NCBI GenBank assembly: GCA_020627885.1
Contig: JAHDGB010000008.1
Span: 1-35,493 of the forward strand
DNA from: Flavobacteriaceae bacterium
Lineage (GTDB): Bacteria; Bacteroidota; Bacteroidia; Flavobacteriales; Flavobacteriaceae
DNA length: 35,493 nt
Direction of reading: 5' to 3'
The translations under genes were made by a program, and so were the position numbers. Below the pieces are notes generated by a model. That model had not been told where the DNA came from and did not search any database. It saw only the letters and a program-made list of their open reading frames with translations. Positions 18,716-32,786 of the stretch are shown here, one piece after another; the stretch's first letter is position 1, and each line of letters opens with the position of its first letter.

Positions 18716-18880
18716 TCATTTTTAAGTTTAACCTTCTGCTGTGATATCGATATTTAAATGAAAATAATTCTTAATAACTATTTGATAAGGGTCTAACTTT
18801 TTGATTAGTAGTTGTATTTGTCGATATATGAGTTTGTAATATAATAATTTAATGCTTTTTGGAGTTATTTTATTAACAAT

Positions 18881-18905
18881 GTGGTATACTGTGGTAAAAA
18901 GTGGG
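18881..18905 (+). promoter_or_regulatory. Probable MraZ operator (three GTGG repeats, 10-bp period)
   Basis: GTGGT at 18881, GTGGT at 18891 and GTGGG at 18901 recur at exactly 10 bp, i.e. TGGTA-N5-TGGTA-N5-TGGGG. MraZ of other bacteria binds direct repeats of TGGG-like pentamers with 5-nt spacers upstream of its own gene. The array lies 10 bp before the TAnnTTTG box, where a bound repressor would cover the -33 region. Repeats and spacing are seen; binding is inferred. Confidence 0.6.
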
Positions 18906-18915
18906 GTATTTTCAG

Positions 18916-18923
18916 TATATTTG
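18916..18923 (+). promoter_or_regulatory. Possible -7 element of the mraZ (dcw) promoter
   Basis: TATATTTG is an exact TAnnTTTG match 33 bp upstream of the proposed TTG start of mraZ, predicting a leader of about 26 nt. No TTG is present at the -33 position, which is occupied by the GTGG repeats. Confidence 0.4.
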
Positions 18924-18955
18924 AACTTATAAATTCAATTAATTTTAAAGGTATT

Positions 18956-19423
18956 TTGAACTCATTTATAGGGACATACGAATGTAAAGCAGATGTAAAA
19001 GGAAGGTTGATGCTTCCTGCTGCTTTAAAAAAACAGTTAGTCCCTGTTTTGCAAAATGGATTTGTTATAAAGAGGGCGGTATTTCAGCCATGTTTAGAAT
19101 TGTATCCAATGGAAGAATGGGAGGTGTTAATGCAAAAAATGAATAAGCTTAATCGATTTAAAAAAAAGAATAATGATTTTATTCGACGTTTTACTGCTGG
19201 TGTAAAAATGATTGACGTAGACGTGTCGGGAAGGTTGTTAATTCCTAAAGATTTGATTGCATTTGCTGGGATTTCAAAATCTATTGTTTTGTCTTCGTCA
19301 GTTAATATTATTGAGGTTTGGGATAAGGGAAGTTATGAAAAGGCTATAGATGAAGCGGCTTTGGATTTTGCAGATTTGGCAGAAGAAGTAATGGGACAAA
19401 ATGAAGAAGATGGAGTATCATAA
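18956..19423 (+). CDS. mraZ: Transcriptional regulator MraZ
   Basis: MraZ is a DNA-binding ring-forming protein that controls the dcw cluster, usually repressing its own promoter. I place the start at TTG 18956, giving 155 residues, with NSFIGTYECKADVKGR as the N-terminus, as in other MraZ proteins; AAAGG lies 4 bp before it. The open frame continues upstream to a GTG at 18881, but those 25 codons run through the promoter and repeat elements. Two AbrB-like half-domains each carry the DxxxR motif: Asp13-Arg17 (DVKGR) and Asp89-Arg93 (DVSGR). The gene overlaps rsmH and begins a run of 13 same-strand cell-wall and division genes. Confidence 0.93.
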   Translation: MNSFIGTYECKADVKGRLMLPAALKKQLVPVLQNGFVIKRAVFQPCLELYPMEEWEVLMQKMNKLNRFKKKNNDFIRRFTAGVKMIDVDVSGRLLIPKDLIAFAGISKSIVLSSSVNIIEVWDKGSYEKAIDEAALDFADLAEEVMGQNEEDGVS

Positions 19424-20309
19424 TTCGGTATTGTTAAATGAGTCTGTAGATGGCTTAAACATTAAAAAAGATGGTGTTTATGTCGATGTTACTTTTGGCG
19501 GCGGCGGACATAGCAGGGAAATATTAAAAAGATTGGGGGATAAAGGACGATTGTTTGCTTTCGATCAAGATCAGGACGCCCTTAAAAATGTGTTAGATGA
19601 TAGTCGGTTTACGCTAATTAATGAGAATTTCAGATATGTAAAACGGTTTTTGAGGTTTCATGGTGTTAAAACGGTAGATGGAATTTTGGCGGATTTTGGA
19701 GTGTCATCTCATCAATTTGATGTTGCAGAGAGGGGGTTTTCAACCCGTTTTGAGGCTAATTTAGATATGAGAATGAATCAAAATGATAAATTGTCGGCAT
19801 ATAACGTGGTTAATGAATATGATGAAGAAGCTTTAAAGCTGGTTTTTTTAAAATATGGAGAGTTAAGAGCAGCTCCAGCAATGGCAAGACTTATTGTGGA
19901 GTATAGAAGAAATGAGCCAGTTAAGACGAGCGATCAGTTAAAGAAAATTCTTAAAAAGTTTTTGTCGCCTAAGCACGAAAATAAAATTTTGGCACAAATA
20001 TATCAAGCGATTAGGATTGAGGTGAATCAGGAAATAGAAGTTTTGAAGGCTTTTTTATTACAAACACCAGAATTATTAAAGTCAGAAGGGCGATTAAGTT
20101 TTATTTCTTATCATTCATTAGAAGATCGTTTGGTGAAGCGGTTTATAAGAAATGGGTTGTTTGAGGGCGATCCGGTGAGGGATATTTATGGGAATTTTGA
20201 GGTGCCCTTAAAAAAAGTTGGAGGTTTAATTGTGCCGTCTAAAGAAGAGGTTTTAAGTAACAACAGGGCAAGAAGTGCTAAATTAAGGATAGCGCAAAAA
20301 GTAGGATAG
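19401..20309 (+). CDS. rsmH: 16S rRNA (cytosine(1402)-N(4))-methyltransferase RsmH
   Basis: RsmH (MraW) uses S-adenosylmethionine to N4-methylate C1402 of 16S rRNA in the decoding centre. The SAM-binding loop VTFGGGGHSREIL is near residues 30-42 and the FISYHSLEDRLVKRF block near 232-246 is characteristic of the family. The ATG at 19401 overlaps mraZ by 23 bp. A second ATG at 19410 (MEYHNSVLL) is equally possible and looks like the usual N-terminus of flavobacterial homologues, so the true length is 299 or 302. An 86-bp, purine-rich spacer separates it from ftsL. Confidence 0.96.
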   Translation: MKKMEYHNSVLLNESVDGLNIKKDGVYVDVTFGGGGHSREILKRLGDKGRLFAFDQDQDALKNVLDDSRFTLINENFRYVKRFLRFHGVKTVDGILADFGVSSHQFDVAERGFSTRFEANLDMRMNQNDKLSAYNVVNEYDEEALKLVFLKYGELRAAPAMARLIVEYRRNEPVKTSDQLKKILKKFLSPKHENKILAQIYQAIRIEVNQEIEVLKAFLLQTPELLKSEGRLSFISYHSLEDRLVKRFIRNGLFEGDPVRDIYGNFEVPLKKVGGLIVPSKEEVLSNNRARSAKLRIAQKVG

Positions 20310-20395: not shown

Positions 20396-20716
20396 ATGAG
20401 AAAAAATATATATAGCATATTAAGAGGGACTTTTTTGGTGAGTGATGATTCGTTTAAAAACTGGCGAGTCATTTTATTTATTTCAGCTTTAGCTATAGTA
20501 ATGATAGCAAGTTCTCATAGTGCTGATAAAAAAGTGCATGAAATAGCAAGATTAAATAATGAGGTAAAAGAATTGAGGTCGCAGTTTTATGATGGAAGAA
20601 CAAAACTTATGGATTTAAAAATGGAATCCTCTGTAGTTGCTAAGATGAAAAAGCGTGGGTTGCTTTCTTCTGATGTTCCGCCTAAAAAAATAATAGTAAA
20701 ACAAATGCATAAATAA
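20396..20716 (+). CDS. ftsL: FtsL-like cell division protein
   Basis: The 106-residue protein is a single-pass inner-membrane protein with a short cytoplasmic N-terminus, one hydrophobic helix at about residues 25-42 and a periplasmic helical region (about 43-85) with heptad-like hydrophobic spacing. This is the shape of FtsL, which joins FtsQ and FtsB to activate FtsW and FtsI at the septum. Similarity by sequence is weak, as usual for FtsL; the place between rsmH and ftsI is the main support. In some annotations this gene inherits a methyltransferase name from its neighbour, which the sequence does not support. Its TAA is 8 bp before the ftsI start. Confidence 0.85.
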   Translation: MRKNIYSILRGTFLVSDDSFKNWRVILFISALAIVMIASSHSADKKVHEIARLNNEVKELRSQFYDGRTKLMDLKMESSVVAKMKKRGLLSSDVPPKKIIVKQMHK

Positions 20717-20724
20717 TAGATCTA

Positions 20725-22728
20725 TTGGCTATACAGGAAAAAAACATATTAAATCGATTGTATTTTATTGCAGGATGTTTGTTTGTCTTTGGTCTTTTAG
20801 TGCTTTTTAAATTGTTAACGATTCAGTTTGTCCATGGGGATAAATACCGCGATTTAGCAGAAAGGAGAACTGTGAAGAATGTGGTTATTCCTGCAAATAG
20901 AGGTAATGTTTACGCGGTAGATGGTAGTTTGTTAGCAACATCAATTCCTAAATACGATATTAGGTTTGATGCCTTAACACCTTCAACAAAAACGTTTGAA
21001 GAAAATTTAAAACCTCTAAGTGATGCTATGGCAAGGTTTTCGGGGAAGCCAGTTGCGTATTATCGAAAAGAGCTTAGAAGAGCAAGAAAAAATAAGAACA
21101 GGTATTTTTTATTGGCGAGAAATATTGGCTATTCAGACTATATTAAATTAAGAGGTTTTCCTTTATTAAGATTGGGTGCTTTTAAAGGCGGGTTAATTGT
21201 AGAGCAAACCACTAAAAGGGAATACCCTATGAGGGGAGTTGCGCAAAGAACAATAGGGTATGAACGTGTAGATAAAGCAGGAAACGTAACAAGGCCAGGT
21301 ATTGATGGTGCTTTTGGAGTTAAATATTTAAGGGGTAAAGATGGTAAGCGTTTAAAGCAAAAAATAGGAAAAGGGCAATGGAAACCTATTGTAGATTATA
21401 ATCAGATAGAACCTAAGGATGGTTATGATGTATATACAACAATCGATGTTAATATTCAAGATATAGCGCATCATGCTTTGTTAGAGCAATTAGAGTATTT
21501 TGAAGCGGAACATGGTTGTGTCATAGTAATGGAGACAAAAACAGGGGAGATTAAGGCGATTTCAAACTTAGGTCGAACTACAAAGGGAACCTATTATGAG
21601 AAATTAAACTATGCAGTAGGCGAAAGTCATGAGCCAGGCTCTACATTTAAACTTATGGCTATGGTTGCAGCTTTAGATCAGAAAGTTATAGATACAAGTA
21701 CTGTGGTAGATACCGAAAAAGGAGTGTTGTCTTTTTATGGAAGAAAAGTTAAGGACTCTAAACATGGGGGTTATGGGAAAATTTCAGCAGCAAAAGCTTT
21801 TGAGGTATCGTCTAATACAGGTTTGGTTAAGTTGATTAATACTGCTTATAAGAGTAACCCGAAAAAATTTGTTAATAAGCTTTATGAAATGGGTTTAAAT
21901 AAGAAATTAAACTTGCCAATTATAGGAGAGGGTGTGCCTTTAATTACTCATCCTTCAGATAAAAAAAATTGGGACGGGTTAGATTTGCCATGGATGGCTT
22001 TTGGTTACGGTGTTCAGTTAACACCAATGCAAACGTTAGCATTTTATAATGCTATAGCTAACGATGGAGAAATGGTAAAGCCCCAGTTCTTGAAAGAGGT
22101 TAGAGAGTTTGATAAAACGATAGTTCCTTTTGAAAGAGAGATTATAAACGCTCAAGTTTGTTCAAAATCTACGGCAAAAAAGATGCAGCAAATTATGAAA
22201 AATGTTGTTGAGAAACCACATGGTACAGCTCATAATATTTATTCTCCAAATTATTCGATGGCTGGAAAAACAGGAACTTGCCAGACTGAGTACTGGATTG
22301 AGAGTAAGCGATACATTTCTTCGTTTGCAGGATATTTTCCAGCTGAGAAACCTAAGTATTCCTGTATTGTAGTAATTCATAAACCAGATTATAAAAAAGG
22401 GTATTATGGTAATACAGTAGCAGCGCCAGTTTTTAAGAAGATTGCTCAAAAAATATATCGAGATACTCCAGTAATTGATGAAATAGAAGTCGTTGAAACT
22501 AAGAATGATTTAGTGGAGATAGAGTATGAAAAGTTTTATAAAATAGCACAGGTGTATAAAACTATAATGCCAGATCTAAAAGGGCTTCCTGTAATGGATG
22601 CTATTGCGCTTCTGGAAAACATGGGGGTAAAAGTTAAAATTAATGGAGAAGGTGTGGTTAAATCGCAGTCCGTCGCAAAAGGACAAAAGTTAAAAAGAAA
22701 TCAAGTAGTAATATTGGAAGTATCGTGA
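20725..22728 (+). CDS. ftsI: Septal peptidoglycan transpeptidase (class B PBP, FtsI) with PASTA domain
   Basis: FtsI crosslinks peptidoglycan stem peptides at the division site and is a beta-lactam target. The 667-residue protein has an N-terminal membrane anchor (about 12-32), a PBP dimer domain (about 50-210), and the transpeptidase domain with Ser306 in GSTFK, SSN at 362-364 and KTG at 515-517. A single C-terminal PASTA domain (about 612-667, beginning MPDLKGL) follows, as in Spo-type PBPs and FtsI of several non-proteobacteria. The start is TTG at 20725; the next in-frame ATG is far inside the protein. It lies 8 bp after ftsL, and murE starts within its stop codon (GTGA). Confidence 0.95.
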   Translation: MAIQEKNILNRLYFIAGCLFVFGLLVLFKLLTIQFVHGDKYRDLAERRTVKNVVIPANRGNVYAVDGSLLATSIPKYDIRFDALTPSTKTFEENLKPLSDAMARFSGKPVAYYRKELRRARKNKNRYFLLARNIGYSDYIKLRGFPLLRLGAFKGGLIVEQTTKREYPMRGVAQRTIGYERVDKAGNVTRPGIDGAFGVKYLRGKDGKRLKQKIGKGQWKPIVDYNQIEPKDGYDVYTTIDVNIQDIAHHALLEQLEYFEAEHGCVIVMETKTGEIKAISNLGRTTKGTYYEKLNYAVGESHEPGSTFKLMAMVAALDQKVIDTSTVVDTEKGVLSFYGRKVKDSKHGGYGKISAAKAFEVSSNTGLVKLINTAYKSNPKKFVNKLYEMGLNKKLNLPIIGEGVPLITHPSDKKNWDGLDLPWMAFGYGVQLTPMQTLAFYNAIANDGEMVKPQFLKEVREFDKTIVPFEREIINAQVCSKSTAKKMQQIMKNVVEKPHGTAHNIYSPNYSMAGKTGTCQTEYWIESKRYISSFAGYFPAEKPKYSCIVVIHKPDYKKGYYGNTVAAPVFKKIAQKIYRDTPVIDEIEVVETKNDLVEIEYEKFYKIAQVYKTIMPDLKGLPVMDAIALLENMGVKVKINGEGVVKSQSVAKGQKLKRNQVVILEVS

Positions 22729-24188
22729 GCGTGTTAAAAGACATATTATATAAAATTGCTATAAATGAAATTGTAGGTAGTACAAGTGTGGAAATTAATG
22801 CCATTCATTTTAATTCTTTAAACATAGAGAGAAATGATGTCTTTGTGGCAATTAAAGGAAGCATGGTAGATGGGCACAAGTATATAGATAATGCTGTAGA
22901 AAAAGGAGCTAAAGCTATTGTGTGTGAGTTAATGCCAATAAAGGTTGTGGAAGGAGTGACTTATGTGGTTGTAGATGATACCAGTATAGCTTTGGCAGTA
23001 ATGGCTGCAAATTATTATAATAACCCCTCTGAGAATTTGAAACTTGTTGGTGTTACAGGAACAAATGGTAAAACAACTATAGCGACTTTGCTTTATCAAT
23101 TATTTAAAAAAGCAGGTTATAAAGTAGGGCTATTGTCTACAGTAAAAATAATGGTAGATAATAAAGAATATGAAACCACTCATACAACACCAGACTCATT
23201 AGTTATTAATAAATTTTTAAATGAAATGAATAATGAGGGGGTTGAGTTTTGTTTTATGGAAGTGAGTTCGCATGGAATACATCAAAATAGGACTAAAGCG
23301 CTTCAATTTAGTGGAGGAATCTTTACTAATTTAACGCACGATCATTTAGATTATCATAATACGTTTTCAGAATATAGAGATATTAAAAAGAGGTTTTTTG
23401 ATGAATTGCCTAAAACAGCTTTCGCATTGGTAAATGGCGATGATAAGAATGGCGGGGTTATGTTGCAAAATTGTAATGCAAAACATTATAAATATGCACT
23501 TAAAAGTTATGCAAACTATAAAACTCAAATTCTAGAAAATCAATTAACAGGTTTGCTTCTAAAGCTTAATAATGTTGAGGTTTGGACCAGATTGATAGGC
23601 AGTTTTAATGCGTATAATATTACAGCGATATATGCTGTTGCGGAATTATTGGGCTTAGAAAAAGTAGAAATCTTAAGATTAATAAGTGAACTGGAAAGTG
23701 TAAATGGTCGATTTCAATACTTAATATCTGATAAAAAAATAACAGCAATTGTCGATTATGCACATACTCCAGATGCTTTAAAAAATGTATTAGAAACCAT
23801 AAATACTATCCGTACAAAAAATGAAGAATTAATAACAGTTGTAGGGTGTGGGGGCGATAGGGATAAAACTAAAAGACCTAAAATGGGGCATATTGCTTCT
23901 GCTTTAAGTACAAAAGTAATTTTTACAAGCGATAACCCAAGAAATGAGGTGCCAGAAAAGATTATAGAAGATATTGAGAAAGGGGTTGAGCCACAAAATT
24001 TTAAAAAAATAGTTTCAATTTCCGATAGAAAACAAGCAATAAAAACAGCTTGTCAAATGGCGAGGCCTAATGATATCATTTTAATAGCAGGAAAAGGGCA
24101 TGAGAGTTATCAGGAAATTAAAGGCAAACGCATAGATTTTAATGATTTTAGAATAGTAGAAGACTTGTTAAGGTTATTGCAAAAATAA
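22725..24188 (+). CDS. murE: UDP-MurNAc-L-Ala-D-Glu:meso-diaminopimelate ligase
   Basis: MurE adds the third stem-peptide residue to the UDP-MurNAc dipeptide in the cytoplasm, using ATP. The nucleotide-binding loop GTNGKTT is at residues 112-118. DNPR at 403-406 is the residue-selecting motif of meso-diaminopimelate ligases (lysine enzymes have a different sequence), so the wall is DAP type. The 487-residue length is standard. The start is GTG at 22725, overlapping the ftsI stop by 4 bp (GTGA), a sign of translational coupling; a second GTG two codons later is possible. Confidence 0.96.
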   Translation: MSVLKDILYKIAINEIVGSTSVEINAIHFNSLNIERNDVFVAIKGSMVDGHKYIDNAVEKGAKAIVCELMPIKVVEGVTYVVVDDTSIALAVMAANYYNNPSENLKLVGVTGTNGKTTIATLLYQLFKKAGYKVGLLSTVKIMVDNKEYETTHTTPDSLVINKFLNEMNNEGVEFCFMEVSSHGIHQNRTKALQFSGGIFTNLTHDHLDYHNTFSEYRDIKKRFFDELPKTAFALVNGDDKNGGVMLQNCNAKHYKYALKSYANYKTQILENQLTGLLLKLNNVEVWTRLIGSFNAYNITAIYAVAELLGLEKVEILRLISELESVNGRFQYLISDKKITAIVDYAHTPDALKNVLETINTIRTKNEELITVVGCGGDRDKTKRPKMGHIASALSTKVIFTSDNPRNEVPEKIIEDIEKGVEPQNFKKIVSISDRKQAIKTACQMARPNDIILIAGKGHESYQEIKGKRIDFNDFRIVEDLLRLLQK

Positions 24189-24233
24189 TAGCAATAAAAA
24201 CGATAGTAGTTAACAGAAATAAAAAGCAAAAAC

Positions 24234-25460
24234 ATGTTGTATTACTTATTTGAGTATATAGAAAAGCATTATCAATTAACAGGAGCAAGTGTGTTTCAGT
24301 TTATTACATTTCGTGCTGCTTTGGCAATTATTTTATCATTATTGTTCTCTACAATATTTGGTAAAAAAATAATTACATATTTACAAAAAAAACAAGTAGG
24401 CGAGAGTGTAAGAGACTTAGGTTTAGAGGGGCAAATTGAAAAAGCTGGAACACCAACAATGGGTGGGGTTATTATTATTCTGGCAACTTTAATTCCTGTT
24501 TTATTATTGGCTAAACTGGATAATGTATATATAATATTATTAATAGTAACAACACTTTGGATGGGGGGCGTAGGTTTTACAGACGATTACATTAAAGTGT
24601 TTAAAAAAGATAAAGGAGGATTAAGCGGGAAATTTAAAATTTTAGGCCAGGTAGGTTTAGGGATTTTTGTTGGGTCTGTTATGTATTTTCATTCAGGAGT
24701 AACGATTAAGCAAGAAAAAATAAGCTCCAATGTTGTGCAGAAAGCACAAAATGCTTTGCCTGAGTTTCATCCTGAAGAGCAATCGTTAAAAACAACTATT
24801 CCTTTTGTGAAAAACAATGAATTTGATTATTCAAATTTAGTGACTTGGATAAGTGAAGATTTTAAGGCATATGCATGGATGGTTTTTATTCCAATAGTCA
24901 TTTTTATTGTCGCAGGGGTTTCGAACGGTGCTAATTTAACCGATGGTATCGATGGTCTTGCAGCTGGAAGTTCAGTAATTATAGTTTTTGTTTTAGCAAT
25001 TTTTGCTTTTGTTTCTGGGCATATAGTATTTTCTGATTATTTAAATGTAATGTTTATACCGCGTATAGGAGAGTTAGTTGTTTTTATAGCAGCTTTTGCT
25101 GGGGCGTTAATTGGGTTTCTCTGGTATAATGCATATCCTGCGCAAGTTTTTATGGGAGATACAGGTAGTTTAACAATAGGAGGGGTTATTGCGGTTATTG
25201 CTATAGCGGTTCGTAAAGAATTGTTAGTGCCATTATTATGTGGCATCTTTTTCGCAGAATCGCTCTCTGTAATTTTGCAGGTAAGTTGGTTTAAATACAC
25301 AAGAAAAAAATACGGGGAAGGACGGCGTATTTTTAAAATGTCTCCTTTGCATCATCATTATCAAAAAGGGGGCTATCATGAAAGTAAAATAGTAACACGA
25401 TTTTGGATTGTTGGGATTTTTTTAGCAATCCTATCTATTGTAACCTTAAAGTTGAGGTAA
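24234..25460 (+). CDS. mraY: Phospho-N-acetylmuramoyl-pentapeptide-transferase
   Basis: MraY transfers phospho-MurNAc-pentapeptide to undecaprenyl phosphate at the inner membrane, forming lipid I. The catalytic aspartates are Asp117 and Asp118 (FTDDYIKV) and Asp309 (MGDTGSL). NLTDGIDG is at 234-241 and the HHH loop is at 373-375. At 408 residues it is about 48 longer than E. coli MraY; the extra sequence is a hydrophilic insertion at about 155-205 between membrane helices, an addition I associate with Bacteroidota MraY. About ten helices are expected. It lies between murE (45 bp) and murD. Confidence 0.95.
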
Positions 25461-25539
25461 TCAGCTCTTCTGAAAATGGAGTGATTAGGTATAGCGAATA
25501 AGTTAGAGCATAATGAAAGGATATGAAAGAATAAAAAAA

Positions 25540-26871
25540 ATGAAACGATTAGTGATTCTTGGTGGGGGGGAAAGTGGAGTAGGCACTGCGCTTTTAGGAA
25601 AAGCGAAGGGCTATGATGTTTTTGTTTCGGATAAAGGGATTATAAAGGAGAAATATAGAAAAATTCTGAAGTATAATGAAATTGAGTGGGAACAGCAGCA
25701 ACATTCGGATAATAAAATTATTAATGCAGATGTTGTGATGAAAAGCCCTGGGATTCCAGATAAAGTTTTATTGATTCAAAAACTTATAGAAAAAGGAATA
25801 CCAGTGGTTTCTGAAATAGAGTTTGCGGCAAACTATACGGATGCGACAATAGTTGGGATTACAGGGAGTAATGGGAAAACAACAACAGCAAGTTTAACAT
25901 ACCATACATTAAAACAGGATTTAAATGTTGGGCTAGCAGGGAATATTGGCGATAGTTTTGCAAGGCAAATACTGGAACATAATTACTCTAATTATGTTTT
26001 AGAAATAAGTAGCTTTCAGTTAGACGGTATAATAGATTTTAAACCGCATATTGCAGTAATAACAAACATAACTCCAGATCATTTAGATCGTTATGAATAT
26101 AAATTTGAAAATTATATCGCATCAAAATTTAGAATAATAAAAAATCAAACAAAAGCCGATTATTTGATTTATGATGCGGATGATGAGATTATTACTACTT
26201 ATATAAGTAAACATAATATAGCATCAACATTATTGCCTTTTTCGTTAACAAAAGTGATTGAAACAGGCGCATATTTAGATAAAAATAGAATAAAATTAAC
26301 CATAGATAATAACCAAATAATTATGCCAACAACAAACTTGTCATTGCAAGGAAAACACAATATAAAAAATGCCATGGCTGCTTCTACAGTTGCTCATTTG
26401 CTTAAAATTAGAAAGCAAACCATTCGAGAGAGTTTAGAAAATTTTCAAGGAGTAGAGCATCGGTTAGAAAACATATTAAAAATTAATAAGGTACAGTATA
26501 TTAATGATTCTAAGGCCACAAACGTGAATGCAACATATTATGCATTAGAAAGTATGGATTGTCCAACGGTTTGGATTGTAGGAGGAACAGATAAAGGGAA
26601 TGATTATACCGAGTTATATCCATTTGTAAATGAAAAGATAAAAGCAATTATATGTTTAGGGGTAGATAATAAAAAATTATTTAAAAATTTTGAAAATATG
26701 GTTGAGGTTATTGTGGAAACACAATTTATGAGTGAGGCAGTTAAAATTGCGTATAAAATTGCAGAAGCAGGAGATAATGTTTTATTATCGCCAGCATGCG
26801 CAAGTTTTGATTTGTTCGAAAATTATGAAGATAGAGGAAGGCAGTTTAAAGATGCTGTCAGGAATTTATAA
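25540..26871 (+). CDS. murD: UDP-N-acetylmuramoylalanine--D-glutamate ligase
   Basis: MurD adds D-glutamate to UDP-MurNAc-L-Ala with ATP. I chose the ATG at 25540 (MKRLVILGGGESG), which puts the N-terminal nucleotide-fold strand at the first residue as in homologues and gives 443 residues. The ATG at 25513 would add nine charged residues. The ATP loop GSNGKTTT is at about 109-116, DHLDRY near 177 and HRLEN near 308 in the central domain, and LLSPACASFD near 415 in the C-terminal domain. The standard Mur ligase order of three domains is complete. Confidence 0.95.
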   Translation: MKRLVILGGGESGVGTALLGKAKGYDVFVSDKGIIKEKYRKILKYNEIEWEQQQHSDNKIINADVVMKSPGIPDKVLLIQKLIEKGIPVVSEIEFAANYTDATIVGITGSNGKTTTASLTYHTLKQDLNVGLAGNIGDSFARQILEHNYSNYVLEISSFQLDGIIDFKPHIAVITNITPDHLDRYEYKFENYIASKFRIIKNQTKADYLIYDADDEIITTYISKHNIASTLLPFSLTKVIETGAYLDKNRIKLTIDNNQIIMPTTNLSLQGKHNIKNAMAASTVAHLLKIRKQTIRESLENFQGVEHRLENILKINKVQYINDSKATNVNATYYALESMDCPTVWIVGGTDKGNDYTELYPFVNEKIKAIICLGVDNKKLFKNFENMVEVIVETQFMSEAVKIAYKIAEAGDNVLLSPACASFDLFENYEDRGRQFKDAVRNL

Positions 26872-26916
26872 ATACTTTTTCGATATGAGAAAAAGATTTA
26901 AGAATATATAAAACAA

Positions 26917-28110
26917 GTGAATTTATTATTTAAAAATATAAAAGGAGATCGGTTAATATGGGCAATATCTGCCCTATTAGCAATTTTTTCGTTTCTCCCA
27001 GTGTACAGCGCAGCAAGTAATTTGGCATACATTGGGGGGGCAGGAAATACCTTCGCTTATTTTGTAAAGCATTTCATGCACTTGTTTTTGGGTTTTACAA
27101 TAATGTATGGTGTTCATAAAATACCGTATCGTTATTTTCGTGGCTTGTCTATTGTTATGATGCCTTTAATATTTGTATTGTTAATTGTAACAATGCTGCA
27201 AGGAACAACTATAGAGGGGGCAAATGCAAGTCGTTGGATCCGTATTCCTATTGTGGGGATGTCTTTTCAAACATCAACATTAGCAGCAGTGGTTTTATTA
27301 GTTTATGTTGCAAGATATATGTCTAAAGTAAAAGATAGTAAGATCGGTTTTAAAGCATCGTTTTTGCCTTTGTGGATTCCTGTTTTTTTAATTTTAGGGC
27401 TAATACTCCCTTCAAATTTTTCGACTACAGCAATTCTTTTTGTAATGGTGGTTATTTTGGTTTTTTTAGGCGGATACCCTATTCGATACTTAGCAGTAAT
27501 TATTGGTTCTGGGATGGCTGGTTTAGTGCTATTCGTTTTAGTAGCTAAAGCCTTTCCTGATGTTATGCCAAATAGAGTAGATACATGGATGAGTAGAATA
27601 GAAAGTTTCTCTAATGGAGAGGATTCGGAATCTGATTATCAAATAGAAAAAGCGAAAATAGCTATAGCATCGGGCGAAATATGGGGGTTAGGGCCGGGGA
27701 AGAGTACTCAGAAAAACTTTTTACCGCAATCATCATCAGATTTTATATTTGCTATTATTATTGAGGAGTATGGTATAATAGGTGGAGGTTTTTTAATATT
27801 ATTATATATGTGGTTGCTTTTTAGGATTGTTATTGTTGCTCAAAAAGCCGATACTATTTTTGGAAAACTCTTAGTGTTGGGAGTAGGTTTACCTATAGTA
27901 TTTCAGGCATTAATAAATATGGCGGTAGCCGTAGAGTTGTTTCCTGTAACAGGGCAAACATTGCCGCTAATAAGTAGTGGAGGAACTTCCATTTGGATGA
28001 CTTGTTTGGCAATAGGGATTGTGCTTAGTGTAAGTTCAAAAAGAGAGGAAATAAAAGAACGGGAAACCATAAACGATAATCCATTAGAAATTTTATCTGA
28101 AGCAATATAA
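26917..28110 (+). CDS. ftsW: Septal peptidoglycan polymerase FtsW (SEDS family)
   Basis: FtsW polymerises lipid II into glycan strands at the septum together with FtsI. The 397-residue protein has about ten membrane helices and recognisable SEDS blocks: SFLPVYSAAS at the end of helix 1, WGLGPGKSTQKNFLPQSSSDFIFA near 255-275 and LISSGGTSIW near 350. The long periplasmic loop around residues 220-255 carries an acidic, Ser-rich stretch. The start codon is GTG at 26917; MNLLF is the expected N-terminus. Its place between murD and murG is that of typical dcw clusters and favours FtsW over RodA. Confidence 0.94.
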   Translation: MNLLFKNIKGDRLIWAISALLAIFSFLPVYSAASNLAYIGGAGNTFAYFVKHFMHLFLGFTIMYGVHKIPYRYFRGLSIVMMPLIFVLLIVTMLQGTTIEGANASRWIRIPIVGMSFQTSTLAAVVLLVYVARYMSKVKDSKIGFKASFLPLWIPVFLILGLILPSNFSTTAILFVMVVILVFLGGYPIRYLAVIIGSGMAGLVLFVLVAKAFPDVMPNRVDTWMSRIESFSNGEDSESDYQIEKAKIAIASGEIWGLGPGKSTQKNFLPQSSSDFIFAIIIEEYGIIGGGFLILLYMWLLFRIVIVAQKADTIFGKLLVLGVGLPIVFQALINMAVAVELFPVTGQTLPLISSGGTSIWMTCLAIGIVLSVSSKREEIKERETINDNPLEILSEAI

Positions 28111-28141
28111 TTTATAAAATATATGTTATCATAAATCGTAA

Positions 28142-29248
28142 ATGGAAAAACAAAAAAAAGCATATAAAATCATATTATCTGGTGGAGGTACTGGAGGACA
28201 TATTTATCCAGCAATAGCAATTGCTAATGAGTTAAAATTGCGATTTCCTGATGCTCAATTTTTATTTGTTGGAGCAAAAGACAGAATGGAAATGGAAAAA
28301 GTGCCGCAAGCTGGTTATGAAATTAAAGGATTGTGGATATCAGGTATTCAAAGAAGTTTATCTATAAGGAATCTTTTATTTCCGTTTAAATTGGTTAGTA
28401 GTTTGTGGAATGCAATGAGAATTGTAAGGAAATTTAAACCGAATGTGGTTATAGGTACAGGAGGATTTGCAAGTGGGCCATTATTACAAGCGGCAGTTTC
28501 TAAGGGTATTCCAAGCTTAATTCAAGAACAAAATTCTTATCCAGGTATAACTAATAAGCTTCTGTCAAAAAAAGTGGAGAAAATTTGTGTTGCTTATGAT
28601 GGTCTGGAACGATTTTTTCCGAAAAATAAAATTATAAAAACAGGTAACCCCGTTCGTTTAGGGTTGTTAAATAGTGAAGATAAAAAGGATCAAGCTAAAA
28701 AACATTTTAACCTTGTGGAAGGGAAGAAAGTATTGTTGGTAATAGGGGGTAGTTTAGGAGCAAAAGCAATTAATGAATTGTTAGAGCGAGAGCTAGATTA
28801 TCTTAATACAAATAACTTGCAAGTGGTTTGGCAATGTGGAAAGTTGTATTACGAAAAATATAAGATTTATGGTAATGATAAGTATGTGCAAGTACATGCT
28901 TTTCTAAATAATATGGATTTAGCATATGCAGCAGCCGATTTTATTATTTCAAGAGCTGGTGCTAGTTCTGTGTCTGAATTGTGTATTGTAGGGAAGCCAG
29001 TAATTTTTATTCCATCTCCATATGTTGCAGAGGATCATCAAACAAAAAATGCAAGAGCAATAGTGAATGAAGATGCTGCGATTTTAATTGCTCAAAACGA
29101 TTTAGAGGTAGATTTTAAAAGTAAGTTTACGCAATTAATAGTTGCCCCAGAAAAGCAAAAACAACTTAGTGAAAACATAAAAAAATTAGCGCTAGAAAAT
29201 GCTACAAAAGATATTGTGGATGAGATAGAAAAGCTTTTGAAACGTTAA
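28142..29248 (+). CDS. murG: UDP-GlcNAc:lipid I N-acetylglucosaminyltransferase MurG
   Basis: MurG converts lipid I to lipid II on the cytoplasmic face of the membrane. [11 protein letters not shown] at 14-24 is the acceptor-side glycine loop, GTGGFASGP near 99-107 is the second loop, and the C-terminal GT-B domain has VIGGSLGA near 200 and [12 protein letters not shown] near 263 for UDP-GlcNAc binding. The length of 368 residues is normal. It starts 31 bp after ftsW and ends 6 bp before murC. Confidence 0.96.
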
Positions 29249-29254
29249 CAAGAA

Positions 29255-30595
29255 ATGAATTTATCTAATATACATACTGTTTATTTTATAGGTGTTGGAG
29301 GGATTGGCATGAGTGCTATTGCACGATACTTTAAGGCTAATCATAAAAATGTTTTAGGTTATGATAAGACACAAACAGAAATAACAAATGATTTAGTGAA
29401 TTTAGATATTAAAATCTATTTTAAGGACGATATTTCTCTGGTTAATAATAAATTTGATGTTAATAGTACTTTAGTAATTTATACTCCAGCAGTTCCTCGT
29501 ACTCATAAGCAATTAACCTATTTTATAGATAATGACTTTAAGGTTTTAAAGCGTTCAGAGATTTTAGGAATTATAACACAGAATACATATTGTTTAGCAG
29601 TAGCAGGGACGCATGGGAAAACAACAACAACTAGTATTTTGGGGCATTTGTTAAAAGAGTGTAATGTTGCAATGACTGCTTTTTTAGGAGGAATAAGTGA
29701 AAACTACAATTCGAATTTAATTTTAAACGGTTCTAAGGTTTCAGTTGTCGAGGCAGATGAATTTGATCGATCATTTTTAACACTATCTCCAGATTTGGCT
29801 TGCATAACTTCTATGGATGCAGATCATTTAGATATATACGGAGATGTTAGAGCTTTGCATCAATCTTTTGAAGATTTTAGTAAAAAAATAAAACCCAAAG
29901 GAAAGTTATTTGTTAAAAATGGGTTGCCAATAAAAGGCATAACATATGGTTTAGAAGATAATTCTGATTATTCTGCAGAAAATATAAAAATAAAAAATGG
30001 GACTTACTTTTTCGATGTAAAAACACCTAAAGGTCTTTTTCGAGGCTTTGAGTTTAGTCTTCCGGGAAGGCATAATTTGTCTAATGCACTAATAGCTATT
30101 GCAATGGCTATAGAGTTTGGTTGTTCTATAAATCAGTTGATTGTTGCGTTGTCTTCGTATAGGGGAGTGAAAAGGCGTTTTTCTTATCAAATTAAAAATG
30201 CGAATAGAGTATTAATCGATGATTATGCTCATCATCCAACAGAGATTAAAGCTGTATATAATGCAGTTAAAGAAATGTATCCTAATGATAAAGTGTTAGT
30301 GTTGTTTCAGCCGCATTTATTTTCAAGAACTAGAGATTTTATAGAAGGTTTTGCGTGCAGTTTGTCTCTTTTTGATCAGATAATGCTTTTAGATATATAT
30401 CCAGCTAGGGAAGCACCAATAGAAGGTGTAAATTCTCAGTGGTTGTTGGATAAGATAGAAAACAAAAATAAGGAGTTAATTAAAAAAAATGAGATCGTTA
30501 GTAAGTTGAAAAATAGTAATGCAAGAGTTGTTCTTGCTATTGGAGCAGGGGATATTGGTGAAGAGGTGTCTAAAATAAAGGAAGCATTGATGTAA
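29255..30595 (+). CDS. murC: UDP-N-acetylmuramate--L-alanine ligase
   Basis: MurC attaches L-alanine to UDP-MurNAc, the first stem-peptide step. The N-terminal Rossmann motif GVGGIGMSAIA is at 13-23, the ATP loop GTHGKTTT at 118-125, VVEADEFDRSFL near 163, and DDYAHHPTEIKA near 325. The 446-residue length fits the family. The gene ends with a one-base overlap with ftsQ (TAATG), so the two are probably translated in sequence. Confidence 0.96.
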   Translation: MNLSNIHTVYFIGVGGIGMSAIARYFKANHKNVLGYDKTQTEITNDLVNLDIKIYFKDDISLVNNKFDVNSTLVIYTPAVPRTHKQLTYFIDNDFKVLKRSEILGIITQNTYCLAVAGTHGKTTTTSILGHLLKECNVAMTAFLGGISENYNSNLILNGSKVSVVEADEFDRSFLTLSPDLACITSMDADHLDIYGDVRALHQSFEDFSKKIKPKGKLFVKNGLPIKGITYGLEDNSDYSAENIKIKNGTYFFDVKTPKGLFRGFEFSLPGRHNLSNALIAIAMAIEFGCSINQLIVALSSYRGVKRRFSYQIKNANRVLIDDYAHHPTEIKAVYNAVKEMYPNDKVLVLFQPHLFSRTRDFIEGFACSLSLFDQIMLLDIYPAREAPIEGVNSQWLLDKIENKNKELIKKNEIVSKLKNSNARVVLAIGAGDIGEEVSKIKEALM

Positions 30596-31314
30596 TGAAA
30601 ATAAATTGGAGCATATTAAAACTATTCATGCTGCTATTTGTAGTCATGTTTTTGTATGTGTTTGCAGCAGAGCGTAATGTTAAACGGAAAGTGGCGCCGC
30701 CCAATATTCAGTTTATAGGAGATAATACTCTTTTTATAACTCATGAAAATGTTAGTAAATTGTTAATACAAAATTATGGAGGCGCTTCAAATGTAACTAA
30801 AGAAGCTTTAGTTTTGAATGAATTGGAGGCTTCTCTAAATGCGAACCCGATGATTAAATCTGCCGAAGTTTTTTTAGGTGTAAATGGAGAATTTTCGGTA
30901 AAAATTAAACAAAAAAAACCTATTGCTCGCGTTATAGGAGAGGAGTCTTATTATATTGATAGTGAGGGTAGGTATATGCCGCTTTCTAATAATTTTTCAG
31001 AAAGAGTACCTATAGTAACAGGGGTTGTAAGTAAAAAGCATTTAGAGTTAGTTTTTAAAATAGCAGATGTCGTTGAGAACGAAGAATTTTTGAAAAAAAA
31101 TGTAGTTGGCATAGAACAAATGAAAAACAAAATGTTTCGTTTAAAATTAAGGCAGTGTAATTTTATAGTTCAGTTAGGGAGTCTTGATTATTTAGAGAAA
31201 AAAATAAACAATTTAAAGGTGTTTTATACTAAAGCCCTAAAGGATAAAACACTAAATAAGTACAGTATAGTGAATTTGCAATTTGAAAATCAAGTTGTAT
31301 GTACCAAAGTATAA
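30595..31314 (+). CDS. ftsQ: Cell division protein FtsQ/DivIB
   Basis: The 239-residue protein is a single-pass division protein that works with FtsL and FtsB in the periplasm. A short cytoplasmic N-terminus precedes one membrane helix (about 6-24). A POTRA-like region (about 37-105) contains the typical NPMIKSAEVFLG and KQKKPIARV strands, followed by a beta-rich FtsQ domain. Sequence conservation in FtsQ is low, so position between murC and ftsA supports the call. It overlaps murC by one base and is 3 bp before ftsA. Confidence 0.93.
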   Translation: MKINWSILKLFMLLFVVMFLYVFAAERNVKRKVAPPNIQFIGDNTLFITHENVSKLLIQNYGGASNVTKEALVLNELEASLNANPMIKSAEVFLGVNGEFSVKIKQKKPIARVIGEESYYIDSEGRYMPLSNNFSERVPIVTGVVSKKHLELVFKIADVVENEEFLKKNVVGIEQMKNKMFRLKLRQCNFIVQLGSLDYLEKKINNLKVFYTKALKDKTLNKYSIVNLQFENQVVCTKV

Positions 31315-31317
31315 GTT

Positions 31318-32664
31318 ATGGAGCATAATATTTCAGTAGGATTAGATATTGGAACCACAAAAATTGTGGCGATGATAGGACGTAAAAATGAATACGGTAA
31401 AGTTGAAATTCTTGGTATAGGCAAATCGAAGAGTTTAGGGGTGCATCGTGGTGTTGTAAATAATATTACACAAACTATACAATCTATACAACTCGCTATT
31501 CAAGAAGCAGAAACGGCTGCTTCAACTAAAATTAAAGAAGTTACAGTAGGAATTGCTGGCCAGCATATTAGAAGTTTACAACATAGTGATTATATCACCA
31601 GAGCAAACTCTGAAGTTGTAATAGACGAAGATGATATTGAACGATTGATAAATCAGGTTCATAAATTAGTAATGCTTCCTGGAGAAGAAATTATTCATGT
31701 TCTCCCTCAAGAATTTAAAATTGATGGGCAAGGGGAGATAAAAGAGCCTATAGGAATGTATGGAGGAAGATTAGAAGCTAATTTTCATGTTGTAGTAGGT
31801 CAAGTCTCATCAATCAGAAATATAGGAAGGTGTGTGAAAAGCGCAGGGCTAGGTCTTGAAGGAATAACTTTAGAGCCTTTGGCTTCAGCTAATGCGGTTT
31901 TAAGCCAAGAAGAAAAAGAAGCTGGTGTTGCTTTAATAGATATAGGTGGAGGGACTACAGATTTAGCAATATTTAGAGATGGTATTATTAGGCATACAGC
32001 AGTTATCCCTTTTGGAGGAAATGTTATTACTGAAGATATAAAAGAGGGCTGTTCTATAATCGAAAAGCAAGCTGAGTTATTAAAAATAAAATTTGGTTCT
32101 GCGTGGCCAGGAGAAAATAAAGATAACGAAATAGTGTCCATTCCTGGTTTAAGAGGTCGAGACCCTAAAGAGATAACCCTAAAAAACCTTTCTAAAATCA
32201 TACATGCTCGTGTTGTAGAAATAATTGAACAAGTCTATGTTGAGATAAAAAATTATGGACACGAAGAGCAAAAAAAGAAATTAATAGCAGGAATTGTTCT
32301 TACAGGGGGAGGAAGCCAATTAAAACACTTAAAACAATTGGTAGAGTATATAACAGGTATGGATACAAGAATAGGTTATCCTAACGAGCATTTAGCAGGA
32401 GAAAGTGATAATACTATTACAAGTCCGTTGTTTTCAACTGCGGTTGGTTTAGTTATGGATGGCTTATTACATCAAGAACGTAGAAAGGAAGAAGAGCCTG
32501 TGGAGGAAGAAGCCGTTTTATATGAAAACGAAACAATATCCCCTTCAGAGGCTGAGCTAGAAAATAGAGCAAATAAATTAAAGAGTAAACCTAAAAAAGA
32601 ACGCCGTTCATTTTTAGATACATTAACAGAAAGAGTAAAAGATTTTTTAGATAACGCAGAATAA
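31318..32664 (+). CDS. ftsA: Cell division protein FtsA
   Basis: FtsA is an actin-fold ATPase that tethers FtsZ filaments to the membrane and activates the divisome. Phosphate-binding loop 1 is GLDIGTTKIVAMIG (8-21), phosphate loop 2 is DIGGGTTDLAIF beginning at Asp208, and the adenosine motif is VLTGGGSQLKHL near 328. The SHS2 (1C) region lies at about 85-165. The C-terminus, after an acidic linker, ends in a basic amphipathic segment (RRSFLDTLTERVKDFL), the membrane-targeting helix. The 448-residue length is slightly above E. coli FtsA (420) because of the linker. Confidence 0.96.
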   Translation: MEHNISVGLDIGTTKIVAMIGRKNEYGKVEILGIGKSKSLGVHRGVVNNITQTIQSIQLAIQEAETAASTKIKEVTVGIAGQHIRSLQHSDYITRANSEVVIDEDDIERLINQVHKLVMLPGEEIIHVLPQEFKIDGQGEIKEPIGMYGGRLEANFHVVVGQVSSIRNIGRCVKSAGLGLEGITLEPLASANAVLSQEEKEAGVALIDIGGGTTDLAIFRDGIIRHTAVIPFGGNVITEDIKEGCSIIEKQAELLKIKFGSAWPGENKDNEIVSIPGLRGRDPKEITLKNLSKIIHARVVEIIEQVYVEIKNYGHEEQKKKLIAGIVLTGGGSQLKHLKQLVEYITGMDTRIGYPNEHLAGESDNTITSPLFSTAVGLVMDGLLHQERRKEEEPVEEEAVLYENETISPSEAELENRANKLKSKPKKERRSFLDTLTERVKDFLDNAE

Positions 32665-32786
32665 TCTGAAAAATAAATAATATAGATAAAGCTAATAAAA
32701 TAAGTTTTTCGTCATTAAGCTCAAGATAAAGAACCATTAGTTATTGAGGTGTTAGACGAAAAGTAAAAAAGAATAAAAAAGAATTT

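What the first reader, a model, noticed from the sequence alone, without database searches (positions are those of the whole stretch)
18881..18923. Putative MraZ operator: three GTGG repeats at exact 10-bp spacing next to a TAnnTTTG box
GTGGT, GTGGT and GTGGG begin at 18881, 18891 and 18901, giving pentamers separated by exactly 5 nt, one helical turn each. MraZ in E. coli and mollicutes binds direct repeats of this design upstream of its own gene. Here the repeats occupy the -33 region of a likely flavobacterial promoter (TATATTTG at 18916). This suggests that dcw autoregulation by MraZ holds in a phylum with a different sigma factor consensus, using TGGT/TGGG pentamers.
Basis: partly seen in the sequence, partly recalled or inferred. 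Interest (0 to 1): 0.65.

Follow-up and report, generated by a model that had tools for sequence, protein, structure and literature searches.

The report
Division-operon switch beside a replication-gene box
Three evenly spaced repeats in front of the cell-division operon look like the docking site for the operon's own regulator MraZ, kept across the flavobacteria examined, and they sit next to a second short box that also marks two DNA-replication genes, hinting at a shared division-and-replication control.

Summary
The triple occurs once in the 2.8 Mb genome.

Comparison supports an MraZ operator. In 60 genomes (own included) 42 of 45 exact triples lie 65-85 bp before mraZ. The other 14 of 56 mraZ genomes keep one- or two-mismatch versions there. 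The 4 mraZ-less ones have no exact triple, and no array at rsmH. Binding and repression were not tested.

(1) Geometry: in 101 of 101 flavobacterial upstreams the array precedes the -7 box; in E. coli and 27 of 33 other-class Bacteroidota loci it follows a TTGAC -35. (2) TTWTNAACA abuts box 1 in 98 of 101. TTATYAACA lies within 200 bp upstream of dnaB (27 of 30) and dnaN (22 of 30), against 1 of 207 upstream regions in one sampled genome. Several loci of other orders carry canonical DnaA boxes near the array. A lineage-specific DnaA box is my best guess, unproven; one of two origin tests agreed.

The parts
18870..18878 (+). TTATTAACA element (TTWTNAACA), 11 nt before box 1; candidate DnaA-type / replication-gene box
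   Evidence: Position. At -10 to -12 from box 1 in 98 of 101 upstreams; same word upstream of dnaB and dnaN
18881..18884 (+). MraZ box 1, GTGG (unit GTGGTATACT)
18891..18894 (+). MraZ box 2, GTGG (unit GTGGTAAAAA)
18901..18904 (+). MraZ box 3, GTGG (unit GTGGGGTATT)
18916..18923 (+). -7 promoter element TATATTTG (TAnnTTTG); predicted start site about 18928
   Evidence: best match 6/6 in 98 of 101 and 5/6 in 3 of 101, 14-16 nt after the last box (ties were settled in favour of 15)
18956..19423 (+). mraZ, TTG start, two MraZ domains with DVKGR and DVSGR
   Evidence: Pfam PF02381 1.1e-25, 2 stretches; matches solved MraZ chains 1n0e, 9qlg, 9sx6, 9qlr
19401..20309 (+). rsmH (mraW), first gene after mraZ
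   Evidence: Pfam PF01795 9.3e-89
20396..34787 (+). rest of the dcw cluster in order: ftsL-like, ftsI, murE, mraY, murD, ftsW, murG, murC, ftsQ, ftsA, ftsZ
   Evidence: ORFs; these gene names were read from the translations by recall, not by a family search

Best explanation
[quoted passage not shown] Shown by comparison: three GTGG boxes one helical turn apart, 14-16 nt from the last box to the -7 element, near-universal conservation in the flavobacterial sets, near-exclusivity to mraZ, and absence from relatives without mraZ. Inferred: an MraZ oligomer binds the boxes side by side on one face of the DNA at about -47 to -24 and keeps the primary sigma/RNA polymerase off the promoter, so mraZ and the genes behind it repress themselves (I put repression at about 0.75, activation at 0.2). 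The TTATYAACA element just 5' of box 1 is a second protein site shared with the dnaB and dnaN upstream regions (association shown). Most likely it is a flavobacterial DnaA-box variant (inferred, about 0.45), so that the division operon is read jointly by MraZ and a replication regulator. The confidence below is for the MraZ-operator core.
For: Own genome: one exact triple, at mraZ. 60 genomes including the own one: 45 exact triples in 43 genomes against 4 for the reversed pattern; 42 of the 45 are 65-85 bp upstream of mraZ; 56 of 60 have mraZ and the other 14 of those 56 keep triples scoring 11 of 12 (11 genomes) or 10 of 12 (3). 101 non-redundant upstreams: best triple 12/12 in 78 and 11/12 in 23; Markov control never above 10 (0.25% at 10). 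Stricter two-box pattern GTGGTAANNNGTGGTAA in the same 60 genomes: 35 matches in 25 genomes (overlapping matches in one array counted apart), 33 of them at mraZ; the window's own array does not match it. mraZ-less genomes: 4 of 4 relatives have no exact triple; 8 of 8 rsmH upstreams (4 relatives, 4 more distant) have no two GTGG at 9-11 or 20-21 bp pitch within 400 bp. E. coli has the same layout, and MraZ acting as a repressor in E. coli and in Mycoplasma genitalium is described in PMC8475190 (passages). Second element.
Against: No binding, footprint or transcript data. The 101-sequence set includes loci fetched because they carry the array (some of L112-L140), so the 60-genome sample is the fairer count. 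Phylogenetic relatedness inflates conservation. In the 148-genome phylum sample the exact triple has a clear background: 73 genomes match, and 5 of the 11 mraZ-less genomes there (G117, G158, G170, G192, G200) hold exact triples somewhere; these I did not examine. The rsmH upstream of G158 (L218) reaches 10 of 12 for its best triple, though without two intact boxes in register. One family of the class (f18, 6 loci) has GTGG-GTGT-GTGT/GTGG-type arrays in most members and no TAnnTTTG at the usual distance. Repressor action is carried over from other bacteria; a Mycoplasma gallisepticum study linked MraZ overexpression to higher FtsZ (as told in PMC8475190), and the operator position differs from E. 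coli. For the second element: no recurrent boxes at dnaA, no origin-like cluster in G027, a lone box at most mraZ promoters, whereas E. coli DnaA mostly needs two boxes 2-3 bp apart (PMC11317965, passages).
Confidence: 0.88

Rival explanations
1. Same operator, opposite sign: MraZ bound at -47 to -24 activates the promoter by touching RNA polymerase.
For: In E. coli and Burkholderia the boxes follow the -10 element (PMC7761207 passages), a natural place for a repressor; in the flavobacterial loci they lie upstream of the -7 element, a place used by activators. No TTG was found 16-23 nt before the -7 box in 101 of 101.
Against: A -33 motif is weak in F. johnsoniae anyway (PMC6847099), and my control set of other promoters was only 10. 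mraZ-less G025 keeps a TACCTTTG box before rsmH without any array, so that promoter can do without MraZ. MraZ represses in E. coli and M. genitalium (PMC8475190).
Confidence: 0.2
2. The repeats are coding: an N-terminal extension of MraZ starting at GTG 18881.
For: The frame is open from 18881 to mraZ.
Against: Relatives align from the codon at 18956 on; array-to-gene distance varies from 65 to 85 bp among 42 genomes; the boxes sit 14-16 nt from a -7 element.
Confidence: 0.02
3. TTATYAACA is not a DnaA box but the site of another factor that controls dnaB, dnaN and mraZ, or an extra contact of MraZ itself.
For: It sits 10-12 nt before box 1 in 98 of 101, and at -11 or -21 in 12 of the 14 degenerate arrays. 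It is absent from the plus strand of the 200 bp before rsmH in the 4 mraZ-less relatives. It is not recurrent at dnaA, no origin-like cluster was found in G027, position 6 is A where TTWTNCACA has C, and pairs at dnaB start 20 bp apart rather than lying 2-3 bp from each other.
Against: dnaB and dnaN upstreams carry it although no exact MraZ triple lies there in the 28 of 30 genomes also covered. Canonical TTWTNCACA occurs within 80 bp 5' of the array in 9 of 21 loci of other families (19 of other orders, 2 of f5) against 0.47 expected.
Confidence: 0.45

Closest known systems
MraZ boxes of Escherichia coli mraZ (Eraso et al. 2014; not held, known here through PMC8475190 and PMC7761207 passages)
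   Same: GTGG repeats at exact 10-bp pitch before mraZ; NC_000913.3 shows GTGG-N6-GTGG-N6-GTGG plus a fourth degenerate box.
   Different: In E. coli box 1 starts 37 nt after the start of TTGAC, so the array begins around the start site; here it lies at about -47 to -24, upstream of TAnnTTTG, and has the TTATYAACA neighbour.
Burkholderia cenocepacia MraZ site (PMC7761207, passages seen)
   Same: Tandem GTG-containing repeats with 10-bp period upstream of mraZ; the fragment is bound by MraZ in gel shifts.
   Different: Four repeats, located downstream of the -10 box and overlapping the start site, as in E. coli.
Mollicute MraZ site AAAGTG[T/G] repeats (Fisunov et al. 2016, not read; cited in PMC8475190 passages)
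   Same: AT-rich lead and GTG core in direct repeats; single genomic occurrence at mraZ in M. genitalium, like the near-single occurrence here.
   Different: Different phylum and promoter type; GTGT allowed there, mostly GTGG here.
E. coli DnaA box TTATCCACA / TTWTNCACA (PMC11317965, PMC5043019, PMC5742627, passages seen)
   Same: Length 9, degenerate at the same two positions (A/T at 3, any at 5), found at replication genes and, in one genome, clustered near the GC-skew minimum.
   Different: A instead of C at position 6; not recurrent at dnaA; pair spacing unlike E. coli's; no DnaA binding shown. Flavobacterial DnaA has alanine where E. coli has the base-contacting Thr435 (29 signatures in 30 loci; contact residues).

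Membership tests
MraZ operator (MraZ boxes) | Direct repeats with GTG/TGGG core at one-turn spacing directly upstream of mraZ | tested here: met
MraZ operator (MraZ boxes) | Linked gene encodes a two-domain MraZ protein with DxxxR motifs | tested here: met
   PF02381 in 2 stretches; DVKGR and DVSGR in the translation
MraZ operator (MraZ boxes) | Site co-occurs with mraZ and is missing when mraZ is missing | tested here: met
   4 of 4 mraZ-less relatives have no exact triple; 8 of 8 mraZ-less rsmH upstreams have no two boxes in register. In the wider phylum sample 5 of 11 mraZ-less genomes have exact triples elsewhere, not examined
MraZ operator (MraZ boxes) | Bound by MraZ; dcw expression changes without MraZ | not testable with these tools
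   Needs gel shift or footprint and a deletion strain
Proteobacterial MraZ operator arrangement | Boxes downstream of the -10 element, overlapping the start site | tested here: not met
   Last box 14-16 nt upstream of the -7 T in 101 of 101; TTGAC 20-50 bp before box 1 in 3 of 101
DnaA box | Consensus TTWTNCACA | tested here: not met
   TTWTNAACA at mraZ (98 of 101, offsets -10 to -12) and dnaB (28 of 30; TTWTNCACA 0 of 30)
DnaA box | Present at replication genes beyond chance | tested here: met
   TTATYAACA within 200 bp upstream of dnaB 27 of 30 and dnaN 22 of 30; 1 of 207 upstream regions in the G016 sample
DnaA box | Cluster at the replication origin | tested here: inconclusive
   G016: densest TTATNAACA cluster (4 in 500 bp) in the rpiB-rnr intergenic region, 20-25 kb from the local cumulative skew minimum. 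G027: the densest cluster (3 boxes) lay before a gene that reads as SusC-like, not an evident origin
DnaA box | Boxes at the dnaA promoter | tested here: not met
   No recurrent box in 30 dnaA loci
DnaA box | Binding by DnaA | not testable with these tools
   Needs gel shift, footprint or ChIP

The most novel reading that the evidence does not exclude
In Flavobacteriaceae the initiator DnaA (with Ala in place of Thr435) reads an altered box, TTWTNAACA, and through it controls the helicase gene dnaB, the clamp gene dnaN and, side by side with MraZ, the whole dcw operon. One composite promoter element would couple chromosome replication to division, and the MraZ operator moved from downstream to upstream of the promoter core as this lineage changed its sigma-factor consensus.
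Probability: 0.36. Interest if true: 0.78.

Novelty: new variant of a known kind. Interest (0 to 1): 0.55.

Why it matters
The E. coli-type MraZ switch appears to hold in a lineage with a different promoter code, but in a different place on the promoter, so one ancient regulator seems to have been re-fitted to a new sigma factor. The neighbouring box shared by dnaB, dnaN and the dcw operon gives a concrete, testable candidate for how replication and division are tied together in Bacteroidota. If TTWTNAACA is the DnaA box of this lineage, origin prediction with the E. coli box would look for the wrong word here.

Tried and rejected
Replacement of the -33 element by the operator: no TTG 16-23 nt before the -7 box in 101 of 101, but my control of other promoters was only 10 (3 TTG hits in that range) and the -33 motif is weak in F. 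johnsoniae, so I dropped it as evidence.

DnaA boxes at dnaA: TTWTNAACA 47 observed against 35.6 expected over 30 loci, no recurrent position; not supportive. G016's record starts at dnaA, yet its skew turns near 0.89 Mb, so dnaA does not seem to be at the origin there.

Second origin test (G027): skew was noisy; my first 400 kb missed the switch; in the next 220 kb the densest cluster (3 boxes) lies before a SusC-like gene next to a LacI-like regulator (names read from translations), probably not an origin.

First cluster screen: 2 of 12 genomes had a triple TTATNNACA, all six boxes TTATNAACA; 7 of 199 with TTATNAACA triples against 0 for the reversed pattern. One of the 7 (G342) is a 9-bp tandem repeat; two lie next to dnaB (G347) and dnaN (G310), which prompted the dnaB/dnaN test. 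The test sets therefore include those two genomes.

Part of the dnaN signal is TTATAAACA at a near-constant 168 bp from the other box, which reads as coding sequence of the upstream gene; I use only the 200-bp count. That count takes the dnaB start as 75 nt before the Pfam match, which is off for a few loci (L272, L276, L284, L300).

Plasmid search for the region: no match. Literature: in the listings (40 of 7,841; 40 of 413; 20 of 72; 25 of 227; 15 of 32; 13 of 14) I saw no paper on MraZ boxes in Bacteroidota, nor one joining mraZ with a DnaA box (12 of 119; 20 of 785 for the 9-mers) showed none on Bacteroidota. These lists are capped and the library holds only open-licence papers; Eraso 2014 was not held. 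The main texts of the two start-site papers PMC9723704 and PMC7366714 do not mention mraZ.

Counting caveats: one search misplaced some starts and one search replaced it; L172 and L201 were still anchored wrongly. The 33 other-class loci were chosen from the 137 mraZ genomes, not drawn at random; fetched loci L141, L145, L146, L149-L151, L153, L155, L156, L160, L161 and L163-L167 were left out of that count, several because the same genome was fetched again.

Full report
Observation. The window holds GTGG at 18881, 18891 and 18901 and TATATTTG at 18916-18923. It is the only exact GTGG-N6-GTGG-N6-GTGG in the window and in the own genome, an 81%-complete assembly of 2.80 Mb in 296 contigs. The gene downstream is mraZ (PF02381), whose relatives align from TTG 18956; behind it the strand runs on through rsmH to ftsZ (names after rsmH read from translations). 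Taking the first T of TAnnTTTG as -12 (PMC6847099, passages) gives a start near 18928, boxes at -47 to -24 and a 28-nt leader.

Conservation and specificity. In the sample of 60 genomes (the own one and 59 relatives) 56 have mraZ. Exact triples: 45 in 43 genomes, against 4 for the reversed pattern. 42 of the 45 lie 65-85 bp upstream of mraZ on its strand; the other three (in G013, G015, G044) lie elsewhere. The remaining 14 mraZ genomes show degenerate triples at the same place, scoring 11 of 12 in 11 and 10 of 12 in 3. The four mraZ-less relatives have no exact triple. Upstream of rsmH in eight mraZ-less genomes (of ten searched; two had no rsmH hit) there are no two GTGG at 9-11 or 20-21 bp pitch within 400 bp, although one distant genome (L218) has a triple scoring 10 of 12. 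A stricter two-box pattern gave 35 matches in 25 of the 60 genomes, overlapping ones counted apart; against the mraZ coordinates, 33 lie at mraZ; the own array does not fit this pattern. So this looks close to a single-target operator in relatives. In the wider phylum sample the exact triple is less telling: 73 of 148 genomes match, often away from mraZ, the reversed pattern also matches in many, and 5 of 11 mraZ-less genomes have triples that I did not examine.

Consensus. From 138 aligned loci (of 139; the one without a hit is a non-mraZ match) I kept 101 below 90% identity over 120 bp. They are mostly Flavobacteriaceae by record title or kinship; a few titles say only Bacteroidia or Bacteroidetes. 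Some were fetched because they carry the array, so this set is not an unbiased sample. Best triples score 12/12 in 78 and 11/12 in 23 (19 of these have ATGG as the middle box); Markov controls reached 10 in 0.25% and never more. The consensus reads TTATYAACAAW GTGGTAAAAW GTGGTAAAAW GTGGTAAAA ... TATATTTGA. The -7 T lies 14, 15 or 16 nt after the start of the last box in 21, 28 and 52 of 101, ties between equal matches being settled in favour of 15.

Same kind of operator, other place. E. coli MG1655 has GTGG-N6-GTGG-N6-GTGG before mraZ, starting 37 nt after the start of TTGAC. In Burkholderia the site follows the -10 box and overlaps the start 'as in E. coli' (PMC7761207, passages). Of 33 loci that I chose from the phylum outside the window's class, 27 have TTGAC 27-46 nt before the anchor box, thus the E. 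coli-like arrangement; six do not by the script, one of them (L201) because it was anchored wrongly. Of 19 loci of the same class but other orders, none shows TTGAC there; L172, anchored wrongly in that call, has one 54 nt before box 1 and L180 one 101 nt before it. In the flavobacterial set 3 of 101 have TTGAC 20-50 nt before box 1. So the operator follows the -35 in most sampled lineages with TTGAC and precedes the -7 element in the TAnnTTTG lineages. One family (f18, 6 loci) has mostly GTGG-GTGT-GTGT/GTGG arrays and does not fit the second rule cleanly. Family labels are anonymous, so I cannot name these groups.

A second element. TTWTNAACA starts at -11 from box 1 in 86 of 101 and, by the listed sequences, at -12 in 11 and -10 in 1 more, thus 98 of 101; the exceptions are L029 (one mismatch), L031 and L038. 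Among the 14 degenerate arrays it is at -11, or -21 where another box precedes, in 12. In 20 of 101 a further GTGG lies 21 bp before box 1. In 21 loci of other families (19 of other orders plus two of f5, same order) canonical DnaA boxes TTWTNCACA occur within 80 bp 5' of the array in 9 (expected 0.47) and TTWTNAACA in 5 (expected 0.69). In family f17 three loci have TTTTCCACA at -16 and the fourth TTTTCAACA at -14, all on the minus strand. In 31 loci outside the class there are 5 with TTWTNAACA (expected 1.46) and 1 with TTWTNCACA (0.67).

Shared with replication genes. A pattern for three TTATNAACA in a row matched 7 of 199 family genomes, control 0; two of the seven lie upstream of dnaB and downstream of dnaN. 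I then fetched dnaB and dnaN from 30 genomes, including those two. On either strand TTATYAACA lies within 200 bp upstream of the dnaB start in 27 of 30 (39 boxes; TTWTNCACA 0 of 30) and of the dnaN start in 22 of 30 (TTWTNCACA 1 of 30). At dnaB, 12 neighbouring pairs start 20 bp apart and 2 start 21 apart. In 400 kb of one complete relative (G016), within 200 bp upstream of 207 ORFs with free upstream space, TTATYAACA occurs at 1, TTWTNAACA at 27 and TTWTNCACA at 5 (ORF starts are mechanical). Related genomes are not independent, though by eye these upstream regions are otherwise poorly alike.

Is it a DnaA box? For: same length and same free positions as TTWTNCACA (PMC5043019, passages); canonical boxes near the array in loci of other orders; presence at dnaB and dnaN. 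Flavobacterial DnaA reads DHATV in the 29 signatures found in 30 loci, whereas E. coli residue 435 is a base-contacting Thr, usual in the proteobacteria surveyed, and T435M is defective in box binding (PMC5742627, passages); alanine there is, however, also seen in some epsilon/deltaproteobacteria. Rare C-to-A changes at position 6 are tolerated in epsilonproteobacteria. In G016 the densest TTATNAACA cluster of 210 kb around the skew minimum (four in 500 bp, in the 0.7-kb space between rpiB and rnr) lies 20-25 kb from that minimum, with no TTATNCACA cluster. Against: nothing recurrent at dnaA; the second genome gave no origin-like cluster; E. coli DnaA mostly binds two boxes 2-3 bp apart (PMC11317965, passages), whereas most mraZ promoters have a lone box and the dnaB pairs are wider; no binding data. 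I put it at about 0.45.

Mechanism. Most likely MraZ autorepression from a site upstream of the -7 element, tuned by a second, replication-linked protein bound next to it. The MraZ part rests on comparison plus published MraZ work (PMC8475190, PMC7761207: passages seen; Eraso 2014 and Fisunov 2016 only through them). The sign of regulation and the identity of the second protein are inferred.

Noticed in passing
G016:C1:911128-911841 (L352:11128-11841): A 0.7-kb AT-rich space between rpiB and rnr, about 3.5 kb from rnpA and 20-25 kb from the local GC-skew minimum, with four TTATNAACA boxes: a candidate replication origin about 0.9 Mb away from dnaA.
   Followed up: partly
L173, L174, L175, L183, L185, L187 (family f18): A family of the class in which most mraZ arrays read GTGG-GTGT-GTGT/GTGG and no clear TAnnTTTG follows at the usual distance; the operator may overlap the -7 element.
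   Followed up: no
L018, L045, L048, L053 and others (19 of 101 loci): The middle MraZ box is ATGG in 19 of 101 loci; in the four named here mraZ itself starts with GTGGTAAAT, so a box-like word lies on the start codon (also seen in loci with an intact middle box, such as L051).
   Followed up: no
L021, L081, L082, L085, L100, L103, L104, L108, L109: A second TTATYTACAAWGTGGTAAAAC unit 21 bp before the first box: the 'element plus GTGG' pair looks duplicated as a unit.
   Followed up: partly
L212 (G025): A 99%-complete relative without mraZ keeps rsmH with a TACCTTTG box but without array or TTATYAACA element.
   Followed up: yes
L220 (G016:C1:3873311): Three TTATYAACA boxes 12 bp apart lie inside a phosphohistidine-phosphatase-like gene next to ppk (names read from translations).
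   Followed up: no
phylum sample, family f36 (G085, G117, G144, G158, G162, G170, G192, G200): The eight sampled genomes of one family gave no mraZ match, a natural group for studying dcw control without MraZ; five of the eight (G117, G158, G170, G192, G200) have exact GTGG triples somewhere that were not examined.
   Followed up: partly
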